Assembly: GCF_031624635.1 (NCBI RefSeq)
Contig: NZ_JAMQOQ010000002.1
Location: 496,001-560,000, forward strand
DNA length: 64,000 nt
Direction: 5' to 3'
Origin: Halogeometricum sp. S3BR5-2
GTDB lineage: Archaea > Halobacteriota > Halobacteria > Halobacteriales > Haloferacaceae
In this document: positions 36,578-40,766 of the stretch, one piece after another
Layout: each line of letters begins with the position of its first letter
Position numbering within the stretch: position 1 is the first letter of the stretch
Notes under the pieces: model-generated
What the model was told of the DNA's origin: nothing
Database searches by the model: none
What the model saw: the letters and a program-made list of their open reading frames with translations, nothing else
Made by a program: the position numbers and the translations under genes

Positions 36578-37050
36578 ACGTGAACTATCAACCTCCGAGA
36601 GTATAACCTTGTGGGATAGATGTCCACCCGACGAACCCGAACGCCCGCCCCCGAGCGGGGCCCGCATCTCGGCTTCCGAACGCGGCGCGAGAGGGCTCGC
36701 GGACCCTCGGTTCCGCCACCATATTATTTCTGATAGTTCTGTCGAGCACCAACGGCGCGTCGCGTTCAAATACCTCGGACCGTCGTCGCAACCGGTCGTT
36801 GGGTCCTCGAACCGCCGCCGTTCGACCCCCCTTCGGTTCTCCTGCACACCGAATCGCCGTCGGCGGATTGGGTGTCTCGAAACACCACTTTCACCGCGCT
36901 TCAGCCACGGTTATTGAGCGACGGCACGTAGTCGGTACCGACGCCGTCCGACCTGCAGCGGTGTGGGGTCGGCGGTAGGTATCGAATCTGACAGTTCGGA
37001 CGTGAGTCACCGATACCGAAGCCTTAACGGACGCACCCGTACTCGCAGGA
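36578..37050. other. Long intergenic stretch upstream of nrdJ leader
   Basis: No credible gene; open frames here are short and of poor composition. Around 36720-36740 lies AT-rich ATATTATTTCTGAT, a possible promoter for the small membrane gene. A GGTATCG/CGATACC inverted repeat (36977-36983 and 37010-37016) closes a 26-base loop near the start of the structured leader. Confidence 0.5.
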
Positions 37051-37083
37051 GGTGTGATATCGGTCACACCGGGTCTAACAAGC
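37051..37083 (+). ncRNA. Hairpin A with conserved 13-base tail, nrdJ leader region
   Basis: GGTGTGA (37051-37057) and TCACACC (37064-37070) form a perfect stem with a six-base loop (TATCGG), followed at once by GGGTCTAACAAGC (37071-37083). The same tail follows hairpin B at 37287-37299. It precedes the 33-codon ORF by about 60 bases. The conserved stem-plus-tail unit suggests a structured RNA or protein-binding module. Confidence 0.5.
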
Positions 37084-37144
37084 ACGGTCGCCCGATTTCA
37101 CAGGCACAGAATGCGCGAACGAACCAGGTCAAAGGAGGTGATCA

Positions 37145-37246
37145 ATGACCGAGATTGCAATTAGCCTGCAATTGGACACAAGCAGCATGCTCATCGTGTT
37201 GCTACTCCTAGCAGGACCTAAGCCGGAGATATCACTCAGCGTCTGA
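37145..37246 (+). CDS. 33-residue hydrophobic ORF with an exceptionally strong ribosome-binding site
   Basis: The ATG at 37145 opens MTEIAISLQLDTSSMLIVLL, followed by LLAGPKPEISLSV and a stop at 37244-37246. Its middle is a short membrane-like segment (SMLIVLLLLAG). AGGAGGTGATC (37133-37143) complements the 16S rRNA 3' end over 11 bases, with ideal spacing. Most genes in this window have no such site. It uses codons such as CTA, TTG, ATT and GCA that are rare in this GC-rich genome, so it may be foreign. It resembles neither any protein I know nor an ordinary leader gene. Homology and expression are untested. Confidence 0.55.
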   Translation: MTEIAISLQLDTSSMLIVLLLLAGPKPEISLSV

Positions 37247-37251
37247 GACTG

Positions 37252-37299
37252 GGTGTGGCCCCCGGACAAACACGGGTGGCCACACCGGGTCTAACAAGC
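37252..37299 (+). ncRNA. Hairpin B with the same 13-base tail, immediately after the mini-ORF
   Basis: GGTGTGGCC (37252-37260) pairs with GGCCACACC (37278-37286); an inner CCCG/CGGG stem continues it (37261-37264 with 37273-37276). Then comes GGGTCTAACAAGC (37287-37299), identical to hairpin A's tail. It begins six bases after the mini-ORF stop, so it could act as a terminator or a processing site. Confidence 0.5.
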
Positions 37300-37359
37300 G
37301 TTCGGTGTAACTCAGTCCCTGCATTTATGAGTAGCGGACTAGCTCCCACCTGAACAGCG

Positions 37360-37378
37360 CATTCTCGCTAAGAGAATG
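37360..37378 (+). promoter_or_regulatory. Perfect 7-bp hairpin in the nrdJ leader
   Basis: CATTCTC and GAGAATG flank a five-base loop. It lies between hairpin B and the nrdJ start (37551). It may be RNA structure or a DNA-binding palindrome; no partner is visible. Confidence 0.35.
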
Positions 37379-37429
37379 TCGTTGTGAAGGGCGGATAGCC
37401 ATTGCTACCGAGATTCAATTACAGGTTCG

Positions 37430-37456
37430 TCAATATCAAGAGTTAACCCATATTGA
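37430..37456 (+). promoter_or_regulatory. TCAATAT/ATATTGA inverted repeat, nrdJ operator candidate
   Basis: Arms TCAATAT (37430-37436) and ATATTGA (37450-37456) are separated by 13 bases containing GTTAAC. About 95 bases before the nrdJ ATG at 37551. Repeats of this shape often bind dimeric regulators. A link to nrdJ control is inference from position only. Confidence 0.35.
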
Positions 37457-37550
37457 GTCCTCACAAACCATCGTTACTATGCCTGGAACTGAGCACGCTA
37501 TCCGATCCGAAATCGCCCGGTGCGGGGACGCTGGGCGGGAGGAACAGTAG

Positions 37551-40500
37551 ATGAGCGGCGCGGACCTATCGGCGGACGAACTCGTCCTGCCAATCAAGCG
37601 CACGGAGGGGGAGACGCTGGCGGACCGACTCACCTCGAACGCCTACAACAACATCCTGCCGGCGCGGTACCTGCGCAAGGACGCCAACGGCGACCTGACG
37701 GAGACGCAGGAGGAACTGTTCGCCCGCGTGGCGAAGAACATCTCGCTCGCGGAGGCCGTCCACGAGGCCGAACGGCGCGATATCGACGTGACGGTGACGC
37801 CCGAGCAACTGAAACCCGACCACCCGCGGCGAGACGAACTCGCCGCCGAGGTGTTCGGAAAGGGGACCACCGCGGAGGACGAGGCTGAGACGACGCTGTC
37901 CGTCTACAACGTCAACAAGTTCGCCTACGACACCGTCGTCCCCGAACTCCCCGAAGAGGTTCGGTCCGTCGTCGAGGAGAAGCGCGAGACGTTCCAAGAG
38001 ATGATGGAGTCGCTCTCCTTCATGCCGAACTCGCCGACGCTGATGAACGCCGGCGACGAACTCCAACAGCTCTCGGCCTGTTTCGTCGACTCGCCCGAGG
38101 ACGACATCACCGACATCCACCAGACGGCCAAGGAAGCCGCCGAAGTGTTCCAGTCCGGCGGCGGGATGGGATACGCCTTCTGGCGACTGCGCCCCTACGG
38201 CGACGCCGTGGGTTCCACGGGCGGAATCGCCTCCGGTCCCATCACCTTCATGCGGACGTACGACCAGATGTGCGAGACCATCGCGCAGGGCGGCGCGCGC
38301 CGCGGCGCCCAGATGGGGGTCATGCGCGTCTCGCATCCGGACGTCATCCAGTTCATCCACTCGAAGAACAAGGACGTCTCCCTGGCCCACTCGCTGCGTC
38401 TGAACGACCCCGACGACTTCACGCACAACTCCTTCGCCGACGCTCTCGACGAGGCGCGCGAACTCATCGACGAGGAGGGGCGCGTTCCGAAACACCTCCG
38501 CAACGCCGTTGAGGGCCACCTCTCGAACTTCAACATCTCCGTCGGCGTCACCGACGACTTCATGGAGGCCCTCTACGAGGACGAGGAGTTCGTCTTCACG
38601 AACCCGCGCACGGAGGAACCCCACGTCGCCACGCCCGAGACCAAGGAGATATACGACATGTTCGGCCTCGGCGAGCACGTCGAGGTGGGCGAGGTGCTGT
38701 CCATCCCCGCACAGAAGCTGTGGGACCAGATGGTCGACGGCGCCTACGAGAACGGCGAACCCGGCGTCATCTACCTCGAACGGGTGAACAAGGAGCACTC
38801 CTTCGACGTCGAGAAACACCCCGAACACCGCATCCTCGCGACGAATCCCTGCGGCGAACAGCCGTTGGAGGAGTACGAGGCCTGCAACCTCGGGCACATC
38901 AACCTCTCGACGCTCGCGGCGACGGACGCCCCCGACTGGCGCGTCTGGCACGACGAGCACGGCGACGAGTACGCCGACACGGCGGCGGCCGTCGACGCCT
39001 TCCTCGAGGAGGCCATCGACTGGGAGGCGTTCGACCACCGCATCGACGAGGGGACGCGCTTCCTCGAGAACGTCGTCACGATGTCGGACTTCCCCGTCGA
39101 GAAGATAGAGGAGAAGGTCCGCGCGATGCGGAAGATAGGCCTCGGCGTGATGGGACTCGCGCAGTTGTACATCCAACTGGGCATCCGCTACGGCAGCGAC
39201 GAGGGCAACGAAGTCGCCGGGAAGCTGATGACCCACATCAACCACCAGTCGAAGTGGGCCAGCCACGAACTCGCAGAAGAGCGCGGCTCCTTCGAGGACT
39301 GGGGCGACTCCAAGTTCGCGGAGCCGACGGAGTACCGCGAGTGGTTCGAGCACCACACCGGACTGGACGCCGACGAGTGGGCCGACGGCTTCCCCGTCCG
39401 CAACCACAACACGACGACCATCGCCCCGACCGGAACCACGTCGATGATCGGTAACACGACGGGCGGCTGCGAGCCCATCTACAACGTCGCCTACTACAAG
39501 AACGTCTCCGACGACGTGCAGGGCGACGAGATGCTCGTCGAGTTCGACGACTACTTCCTCCGCGTCTTAGAGGAGAACGACATCGACGTCGAGGAGGTCA
39601 AGCGAGAGGCCCAAGCGCAGATGTCGAACAACGAGTTCGACGGCGTCGAGGGACTCGACACCGTTCCGGACGCCATCGGCGAACTGTTCGTCGTCACCTC
39701 CGACCTCTCGGGCAAGGACCACGCTGCGGTCCAGACGGCCTGTCAGACGGGCGTCGACTCGGCCATCTCGAAGACCTGCAACTTCCCGAACTCGGCCTCC
39801 AAAGAGGACATGGACGAGGTGTACCGCTACATCTACGACAACGGCGGGAAGGGCGTCACCGTCTACCGCGACGGCACGCGCTCGAAGCAGGTGCTGACGA
39901 CGCGCGCGAAGAACGCCGACTTCGCCGACGAGGGCGAGGCGGCCGAGACGCTGGTCGACCAGATGGAGGAGGTGTTCGGCGGCCTGCAGGGCTTCCTCGA
40001 CAACGAGGACGTCCGCGCGGCGCTTGACGGCGAAGTCGAGCGCCTGCTGGCGGCGGCCGACGGCGAGCGCAACCTCGGCAAGAAGCGCCCGCGCCCGGAC
40101 GTGCTCCACGGCGTCACCCAGCGCATCGACACCGGCTACGGGAAACTGTACGTCAACATCAACGAGGACCCCGAGACGGGCGACCCCTTCGAGTTGTTCG
40201 CCAACATCGGCAACTCCGGCGGCTTCACCGCCTCGTTCACCGAGGCGCTGGCGAAGACCATCTCGACGGCGCTGCGCTCGGGCGTCGACCCGAGCGAGAT
40301 AGCCAGCGAACTGCAGGGCATCCGCAGCCCGAAGGTCGCTTGGGACAAAGGCGAGCAGATAAACAGCATCCCGGACGCCATCGGCACCGCGATGCGCCGC
40401 TACCTCGACGGCGAGATAGACAAGGGCTACCCGCAGCAGCAGAGCCTCACCGAAGTCTCCGAGGAGGCGGTCGGCGAGAGCGTCGATGCGCCCGAACCGG

Positions 40501-40766
40501 ACGGAGGTCGGAAATCGCAGAGCGATTTCCGAGCACGCCAGGACTCGCAGAGTTCTGGGGATGGAGCGACCGTCGACGGGCCGAACGTCGACGCCGGCGT
40601 CGACGTCGACTCCGCGTCCGCGTCCCCCTCGTCCGCGTCGGACGACGCGGTGGACGACCTGCTGGCGGCGGGCGAGAGCCCCGAGTGTCCCGACTGCGGC
40701 AACATGACGCTGTACTACTCCGAGGGCTGCAAGACGTGCGAGTCCTGCGGCTGGTCGGAGTGTTGA
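37551..40766 (+). CDS. nrdJ: Adenosylcobalamin-dependent (class II) ribonucleotide reductase
   Basis: A 1071-residue class II RNR. The thiyl/substrate site SACFVDSPEDD and the catalytic NPCGEQPLEEYEACNLG motif are intact, as is APTGTTSMIGNTTGGCEP. The C-terminus has CPDCGNMTLYYSEGCKTCESCGWSEC-like cysteine pairs that re-reduce the active site. It converts ribonucleotides to deoxyribonucleotides using vitamin B12. Residues about 985-1040 form a variable linker that contains two inserted palindromes (see repeat entry). No intein is present. The upstream leader is unusually structured. Confidence 0.96.
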   Translation: MSGADLSADELVLPIKRTEGETLADRLTSNAYNNILPARYLRKDANGDLTETQEELFARVAKNISLAEAVHEAERRDIDVTVTPEQLKPDHPRRDELAAEVFGKGTTAEDEAETTLSVYNVNKFAYDTVVPELPEEVRSVVEEKRETFQEMMESLSFMPNSPTLMNAGDELQQLSACFVDSPEDDITDIHQTAKEAAEVFQSGGGMGYAFWRLRPYGDAVGSTGGIASGPITFMRTYDQMCETIAQGGARRGAQMGVMRVSHPDVIQFIHSKNKDVSLAHSLRLNDPDDFTHNSFADALDEARELIDEEGRVPKHLRNAVEGHLSNFNISVGVTDDFMEALYEDEEFVFTNPRTEEPHVATPETKEIYDMFGLGEHVEVGEVLSIPAQKLWDQMVDGAYENGEPGVIYLERVNKEHSFDVEKHPEHRILATNPCGEQPLEEYEACNLGHINLSTLAATDAPDWRVWHDEHGDEYADTAAAVDAFLEEAIDWEAFDHRIDEGTRFLENVVTMSDFPVEKIEEKVRAMRKIGLGVMGLAQLYIQLGIRYGSDEGNEVAGKLMTHINHQSKWASHELAEERGSFEDWGDSKFAEPTEYREWFEHHTGLDADEWADGFPVRNHNTTTIAPTGTTSMIGNTTGGCEPIYNVAYYKNVSDDVQGDEMLVEFDDYFLRVLEENDIDVEEVKREAQAQMSNNEFDGVEGLDTVPDAIGELFVVTSDLSGKDHAAVQTACQTGVDSAISKTCNFPNSASKEDMDEVYRYIYDNGGKGVTVYRDGTRSKQVLTTRAKNADFADEGEAAETLVDQMEEVFGGLQGFLDNEDVRAALDGEVERLLAAADGERNLGKKRPRPDVLHGVTQRIDTGYGKLYVNINEDPETGDPFELFANIGNSGGFTASFTEALAKTISTALRSGVDPSEIASELQGIRSPKVAWDKGEQINSIPDAIGTAMRRYLDGEIDKGYPQQQSLTEVSEEAVGESVDAPEPDGGRKSQSDFRARQDSQSSGDGATVDGPNVDAGVDVDSASASPSSASDDAVDDLLAAGESPECPDCGNMTLYYSEGCKTCESCGWSEC
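40508..40558 (+). repeat. Two adjacent palindromes inside nrdJ linker coding sequence
   Basis: TCGGAAATCGC and GCGATTTCCGA (40508-40532, AGA loop) pair over 11 bases. CCAGGACTC and GAGTTCTGG (40538-40558, GCA loop) pair with one mismatch. Both encode the low-complexity linker GRKSQSDFRARQDSQSS, so they are in-frame insertions tolerated between domains. Confidence 0.5.

What the first reader, a model, noticed from the sequence alone, without database searches (positions are those of the whole stretch)
37051..37299. A possible new leader/toxin-like module upstream of nrdJ: twin hairpins with identical tails around a 33-codon ORF with an 11-base ribosome-binding site
Seen directly: hairpin A (37051-37070) and hairpin B (37252-37286), each followed by GGGTCTAACAAGC; between them the ORF at 37145-37246 encoding a hydrophobic 33-mer with AGGAGGTGATC six bases before its start region, an 11-base perfect match to the 16S 3' end. 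The stretch is richer in A/T than its flanks and uses rare codons. Established: small hydrophobic peptides with structured leaders and strong ribosome-binding sites are typical of bacterial type I toxins; leader peptides also regulate by translation. Inference: this could be an archaeal toxin-like or leader-peptide system, or a small mobile element. It does not resemble the usual cobalamin riboswitch, though the next gene needs B12.
Basis: partly seen in the sequence, partly recalled or inferred. Interest (0 to 1): 0.72.

Follow-up and report, generated by a model that had tools for sequence, protein, structure and literature searches.

The report
Insertion before haloarchaeal nrdJ's conserved uORF
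The twin-hairpin stretch is part of a 415-base piece of foreign-looking DNA that landed in this species between the promoter and the start of an essential DNA-building gene, whereas the feature conserved across salt-loving archaea is a tiny reading frame next to it that probably hands ribosomes to that gene.

Summary
In detail: hairpin A (37051-37070), hairpin B (37252-37286), identical GGGTCTAACAAGC tails, a 33-codon ORF, an 11-base SD match, low GC and rare codons all check out. The interpretation mostly does not. Alignment with four congeners and other genera shows that 37045-37459 is a clean 415-bp insertion at GTACTC|ACAAGCC. It separates the native nrdJ BRE/TATA box (TTAAC at 37024-37028) from the conserved nrdJ leader. 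I found no relative of the insert, its hairpin-tail motif or its peptide, so there is no sign of a conserved toxin or leader-peptide module. It is most likely a solitary transposase-free mobile-element relic (PATE-like anatomy, membership unproven). The conserved feature lies just downstream, at 37460-37550: a 23-codon uORF (37479-37550) whose stop abuts the nrdJ start. A coupled ATG uORF is present in 90/97 Haloferacaceae genomes (27 genera) and 37/40 genomes of other haloarchaeal families, against 3/70 control genes. Its peptide is not conserved (pS about equal to pN), but start, frame and stop/start junction are. In some clades a covarying hairpin sits beside the nrdJ SD. The most likely role is translation of nrdJ by termination-reinitiation. 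No expression data were available.

The parts
37016..37028 (+). Native nrdJ core promoter: BRE-like CCGAAG and TATA-like TTAAC (37024-37028), now cut off from the leader
   Evidence: Aligned in congeners 32 nt before the uORF ATG; PWM score 15.5, above the training median of 11.9
37045..37459 (.). 415-bp insertion, flanked by CTC on both sides (37042-37044 / 37460-37462)
   Evidence: Empty site contiguous in G038-G041 and in other genera; GC 52%; no relative found
37051..37070 (+). Hairpin A
37071..37083 (+). Tail copy 1, GGGTCTAACAAGC (3' part of the 22-nt direct repeat 37062-37083)
37133..37143 (+). AGGAGGTGATC, 11-base match to the 16S 3' end
37145..37246 (+). 33-codon ORF inside the insert, rare codons, no homologue
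37252..37286 (+). Hairpin B (strong)
   Evidence: z -5.1
37287..37299 (+). Tail copy 2 (3' part of the direct repeat 37278-37299)
37324..37328 (+). Strongest TATA-like site inside the insert (TTTAT)
   Evidence: PWM score 10.3; promoter activity inferred only
37360..37378 (+).
   Evidence: Seen directly
37443..37447 (+). TATA-like TTAAC at the right end of the insert, 31 nt before the uORF ATG (native spacing 32)
   Evidence: score 5.7, chance 0.012 at that position, so suggestive only
37479..37550 (+). Conserved nrdJ uORF, 23 codons (MPGTEHAIRSEIARCGDAGREEQ), stop TAG directly before the nrdJ ATG
   Evidence: Coupled ATG uORF in 90/97 and 37/40 genomes; shuffle mean 13.9 of 97; gene control 3/70
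37514..37537 (+). Leader hairpin next to the nrdJ SD (CGCCCGGTGCGGGGACGCTGGGCG), conserved in g1/g15/g19 with compensatory changes
37538..37542 (+). SD-like GGAGG inside the uORF end, before nrdJ
37551..40766 (+). nrdJ, adenosylcobalamin-dependent class II ribonucleotide reductase
   Evidence: TIGR02504 E 1e-219, above cut-off

Best explanation
Two things lie side by side. (1) The reported twin-hairpin/33-codon stretch is the left part of a 415-bp species-specific insertion (37045-37459) that landed near the predicted transcription start of nrdJ. It parts the native BRE/TATA from the leader. Most likely it is a solitary, transposase-free mobile-element relic with PATE-like anatomy: no terminal inverted repeats, two near-identical palindromes forming a 22-nt direct repeat, at most 3 bp of target duplication. 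Its ORF shows no sign of being a conserved gene. The displaced promoter would now read into the insert, and nrdJ would depend on read-through or on TATA-like sites that the insert carries (37324, 37443). (2) The conserved nrdJ leader is the next 91 nt. A near-leaderless transcript would start about 7-10 nt before a short uORF; ribosomes would translate 12-26 codons of unconserved sequence, terminate on the nrdJ start codon, and re-initiate on nrdJ with help from an SD inside the uORF end. In some clades a covarying hairpin beside that SD could hide the nrdJ start until a ribosome opens it. Shown: the insertion, conservation of uORF start, frame and stop/start junction, lack of peptide conservation, covariation. 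Inferred: mobile origin, promoter use, translation of the uORF, coupling.
For: Clean insertion against all four congeners and other genera. No second copy in the genome or homologue elsewhere. Low GC and CAI. 22-nt repeat with palindromes; PATE description incl. HqIRS46, 390 bp with a 22-bp repeat of its near-terminal palindromes (PMC3119063). Coupled uORF in 90/97 genomes, 27 genera, against shuffle mean 13.9, max 27. In every frame class the stop sits at the matching position: frame 0 with a stop directly before the ATG, frame 1 with a stop ending at -1, frame 2 with ATGA overlap. 37/40 in nine other families. 3/70 in annotated haloarchaeal genes with at least 100 nt upstream. pS 0.31 / pN 0.33. 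Hairpin 92.8% paired, 18 double-change cells, 0/500 shuffles, collapses when slid. SD-like motif before nrdJ in 120/137. H. volcanii: overlapping gene pairs translated by termination-reinitiation (PMC6728339), SD not used for de novo initiation at 5'-UTRs (PMC3986360).
Against: PATEs are normally multi-copy and end close to the palindromes; here there is one copy, hairpin B is 160 nt from the right edge, and the ends do not match the hairpin-GGAGGATGTCA ends of the resident IS605-type elements. The substitute TATA at 37443 is weak (P = 0.012). No RNA or ribosome data are available. The hairpin is clade-restricted, 49/137 against 22.6 expected. uORF lost or different in most of genus g17. Because nrdJ nearly always starts ATGAG, a +4 stop is available by default; the shuffles keep this and still give only about 14%.
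Confidence: 0.74

Rival explanations
1. The insert is a small toxin or leader-peptide module: a hydrophobic 33-mer translated from a strong SD and controlled by flanking hairpins.
For: ORF, SD and hairpins are really there. The displaced native promoter points into it.
Against: No homologue of peptide or motif anywhere searched. CAI 0.22. SD not used at 5'-UTRs in H. volcanii. The antitoxin side was not shown.
Confidence: 0.06
2. The 415 bp is not a mobile element but a fragment of plasmid or virus DNA captured by illegitimate recombination (CTC microhomology), with the 22-nt repeat arisen inside it.
For: Low GC, single copy, no terminal inverted repeats, no defined ends, only 3 bp shared at the edges.
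Against: No match in plasmid, phage or viral collections. Two structured repeats with one close to the left edge look element-like.
Confidence: 0.4
3. nrdJ leader conservation is a protein-binding or RNA-structure constraint, and the open frame is incidental.
For: Peptide not conserved. Conserved CGTYAC-like motif just before the uORF ATG. Covarying hairpin in some clades.
Against: Stop position switches with the frame of the uORF across genera. uORF is present in genera with no hairpin and no alignable leader. Gene control 3/70.
Confidence: 0.12
4. The region is an integron-like cassette (GTCTAAC resembles the attC R'' box).
For: GTCTAAC fits RYYYAAC at both tails (read; consensus from memory).
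Against: I found no GTTRRRY partner at 50-130 nt and none at the insertion edges (read). No homologous cassette was found.
Confidence: 0.01

Closest known systems
PATEs of haloarchaea (Haloquadratum, PMC3119063), esp. HqIRS46
   Same: Size about 400 bp, no terminal inverted repeats, two near-identical palindromes forming a 22-bp direct repeat, no clear target duplication, strain/species-specific insertion
   Different: Single copy, no sequence relative, one palindrome 160 nt from the edge, ends unlike the resident IS605-type elements
Termination-reinitiation at ATGA/TGATG gene overlaps in Haloferax volcanii (PMC6728339)
   Same: Stop/start overlap or abutment, SD inside the upstream frame, haloarchaeal host
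   Different: Upstream frame is 12-26 codons with no conserved peptide, i.e. apparently only a ribosome-delivery device; conserved across haloarchaea at nrdJ
uORFs in long 5'-UTRs of H. volcanii (PMC4983044)
   Same: 15-31-codon uORFs upstream of normal-sized genes in haloarchaea
   Different: That list covers 5'-UTRs of 150-250 nt and does not include nrdJ; the nrdJ leader is only about 80-90 nt
B12 riboswitch / uORF leader of ppe2 in Mycobacterium tuberculosis (PMC11260477)
   Same: A translated uORF whose termination-reinitiation is needed for the downstream gene, in a B12-linked setting
   Different: No cobalamin riboswitch here; unrelated gene and domain of life

Membership tests
PATE (palindrome-associated transposable element) | No terminal inverted repeats, too short for a transposase | tested here: met
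   415 bp, no terminal inverted repeat found, longest ORF about 60 aa without family match
PATE (palindrome-associated transposable element) | Near-terminal palindromes at both ends | tested here: not met
   Hairpin A is 6 nt from the left edge, but hairpin B is 160 nt from the right edge
PATE (palindrome-associated transposable element) | No target duplication | tested here: inconclusive
   3-nt CTC on both edges, could be duplication or shared target
PATE (palindrome-associated transposable element) | Palindromes related to IS605-type elements or other copies | tested here: not met
   No similarity to 16 resident TnpB loci; their ends read hairpin-GGAGGATGTCA; no other copies
Type I toxin-antitoxin | Small hydrophobic toxin conserved or related to a known family | tested here: not met
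   No Pfam, PHROG or tblastn match
Type I toxin-antitoxin | Antisense or divergent antitoxin RNA | not testable with these tools
   Needs RNA-seq
Cobalamin riboswitch | Match to a cobalamin riboswitch covariance model | tested here: not met
   No such match at gathering or at E up to 1
Translationally coupled uORF (nrdJ leader, 37479-37550) | uORF stop overlaps or abuts the downstream start | tested here: met
   90/97 and 37/40 genomes
Translationally coupled uORF (nrdJ leader, 37479-37550) | More frequent than chance and than at other genes | tested here: met
   Shuffles 13.9/97; other genes 3/70
Translationally coupled uORF (nrdJ leader, 37479-37550) | uORF is translated and needed for the downstream protein | not testable with these tools
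   Needs Ribo-seq and reporter mutants

The most novel reading that the evidence does not exclude
Haloarchaeal nrdJ is under a class-wide translational control device: a peptide-independent mini-ORF on a near-leaderless mRNA feeds ribosomes to nrdJ by termination-reinitiation, in some clades gated by an SD-proximal hairpin that could respond to a metabolite or protein. In this one species an insertion has displaced the promoter in front of it.
Probability: 0.45. Interest if true: 0.62.

Novelty: new variant of a known kind. Interest (0 to 1): 0.42.

Why it matters
The reported module itself is a one-species insertion and of modest interest. Its value is as a natural experiment: it marks the border between promoter and leader of nrdJ, the AdoCbl-dependent ribonucleotide reductase that supplies DNA precursors. 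The neighbouring coupled uORF occurs in nearly all haloarchaea examined although its peptide is free to change. That makes a direct test possible of why a haloarchaeal gene would keep a 'useless' mini-gene: SD-led initiation at 5'-UTRs does not work in Haloferax volcanii, and reinitiation may be the way round.

Tried and rejected
Integron attC site: tails fit RYYYAAC, but I found no GTTRRRY partner at the right distance; rejected. IS605 end of a resident element: compared with 16 TnpB loci, whose 3' ends read hairpin-GGAGGATGTCA, no match. Search for the tail/hairpin in genomes, viral contigs, plasmids and phages: only chance matches, e.g. L056 in a Methanohalobium MAG and L057/L058 in viral contigs, the 17-18-mer lying in apparently coding DNA with no hairpin. 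Rfam: no match but one sub-threshold C/D snoRNA-like chance hit. Peptide-sensing leader (attenuator type) for the nrdJ uORF: rejected because pS and pN are equal. A 'perfectly placed substitute promoter' in the insert was my first idea; the PWM test gave only P = 0.012 for 37443 and a better site at 37324, so it is kept as suggestive.

Full report
Observation. The repeat is longer than stated: 22 nt, GGTCACACCGGGTCTAACAAGC / GGCCACACCGGGTCTAACAAGC, 216 nt apart. Hairpin B is far more stable than shuffles (z -5.1); hairpin A is not (z -1.1). The 13-mer occurs exactly only twice in the 4.66-Mb genome, both here. GC of the stretch is 52% against 67%, among the lowest 0.3% of equal windows. The ORF uses rare codons, CAI 0.22 against 0.78 for nrdJ. 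AGGAGGTGATC occurs once in 64 kb.

It is an insertion. Searching the family with 37030-37560 returned, in every congener, only the last ~100 bases (37457-37560), not the reported stretch. Aligning the congeners and other genera shows GGACGCACCCGTACTC|ACAAGCCATCGTTAC contiguous elsewhere and interrupted here by 415 bases, 37045-37459, with CTC on both edges. The left flank up to the native promoter (CCGAAGCCTTAAC) and the right flank are both orthologous, so nothing was lost. The insert parts this promoter from the leader.

No relatives of the insert. A DNA search of 392 genomes of the order gave nothing above chance and no second copy in the own genome. The hairpin-tail pattern was found only at this locus in 392 genomes. 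An 18-mer of the motif in 85k genomes gave one chance hit in a methanogen MAG; viral contigs gave two chance hits, also in apparently coding DNA. Plasmids and phages gave nothing relevant for DNA or peptide. No Pfam or PHROG match. The anatomy resembles palindrome-associated transposable elements described in Haloquadratum, above all HqIRS46 (390 bp, 22-bp repeat of its near-terminal palindromes; PMC3119063). But hairpin B is 160 nt from the right edge, there is one copy only, and the resident IS605-type elements (16 TnpB loci, one broken TnpA) have other ends. I therefore call it PATE-like, not a PATE.

The conserved leader. The next 91 nt (37460-37550) are the real nrdJ leader. They hold an ATG-started frame of 23 codons, 37479-37550, whose TAG touches the nrdJ ATG (one search shows this frame). 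nrdJ is a class II ribonucleotide reductase (TIGR02504). I fetched nrdJ upstream regions. A coupled ATG frame, with its stop ending between -3 and +4 of the nrdJ start, is present in 90 of 97 Haloferacaceae genomes, 27 genera, and in 37 of 40 genomes of nine other families. Dinucleotide shuffles give 13.9 of 97 (largest 27 in 200 runs), and random ATGA anchors 7%. Of 70 annotated haloarchaeal plasmid genes with at least 100 nt of upstream gap, 3 have one. The stop position goes with the frame: frame-0 uORFs have a stop directly before the ATG, frame-1 uORFs a stop ending at -1, frame-2 uORFs the ATGA overlap.

The peptide does not matter, the frame does. Within the alignable group (19 sequences) pS is 0.31 and pN 0.33; in genus g21 0.17 and 0.22. 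So start, frame and stop are kept while the amino acids drift. The start sits after a CGTYAC-like motif. The TATA-like box lies mostly 36-38 nt before the uORF ATG (66 of 81), which by the usual archaeal TATA-to-start distance (own knowledge) implies a 5'-UTR of roughly 7-10 nt.

Hairpin. In genera g1, g15 and g19 a stem directly before the SD is supported by compensatory changes: 92.8% of cells paired, 18 cells with both sides changed, 0/500 shuffles, and it collapses when slid. It is clade-restricted: found in 49/137 against 22.6 expected, and in all sampled members of g1, g5, g9, g10, g15.

Mechanism. Haloferax volcanii does not use SD for initiation at 5'-UTRs (PMC3986360) but does translate overlapping genes by termination-reinitiation (PMC6728339). 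A near-leaderless mini-ORF ending on the nrdJ start would deliver ribosomes to nrdJ, with SD-like sequence inside its end (120/137). This is inferred; translation was not measured. The literature that I could search names uORFs in longer H. volcanii leaders but not nrdJ (PMC4983044), and describes an analogous B12-linked uORF in Mycobacterium tuberculosis (PMC11260477).

What the insertion does. The native TATA (score 15.5) would now read into the insert. TATA-like sites at 37324 (10.3) and 37443 (5.7, native spacing, P = 0.012) could take over nrdJ. The coupled uORF is intact. The 33-codon ORF may be transcribed from the captured promoter, but nothing shows that it is a gene.

Noticed in passing
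window 37479-37550 and loci L059-L147, L151-L190: Coupled short uORF upstream of nrdJ in nearly all haloarchaea examined; it became part of the main result.
   Followed up: yes
genus g17 loci L095, L096, L115, L142, L143: Most g17 genomes lack the ATG uORF at the usual place; two (L120, L138) have a longer one. May be loss or a non-ATG start.
   Followed up: no
L198-L206 (own genome, TnpB 3' flanks): Several IS605-type elements end in a short hairpin followed by GGAGGATGTCA, a recurrent right-end signature in this genome.
   Followed up: partly
own genome G000:C3:530179-530379 (L191): The only IS200-type TnpA found carries an in-frame TGA, so IS605-type movement may now lack its transposase.
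   Followed up: no
window 37360-37378: Third perfect 7-bp hairpin in the insert (CATTCTC GCTAA GAGAATG), just downstream of the strongest TATA-like site at 37324.
   Followed up: no
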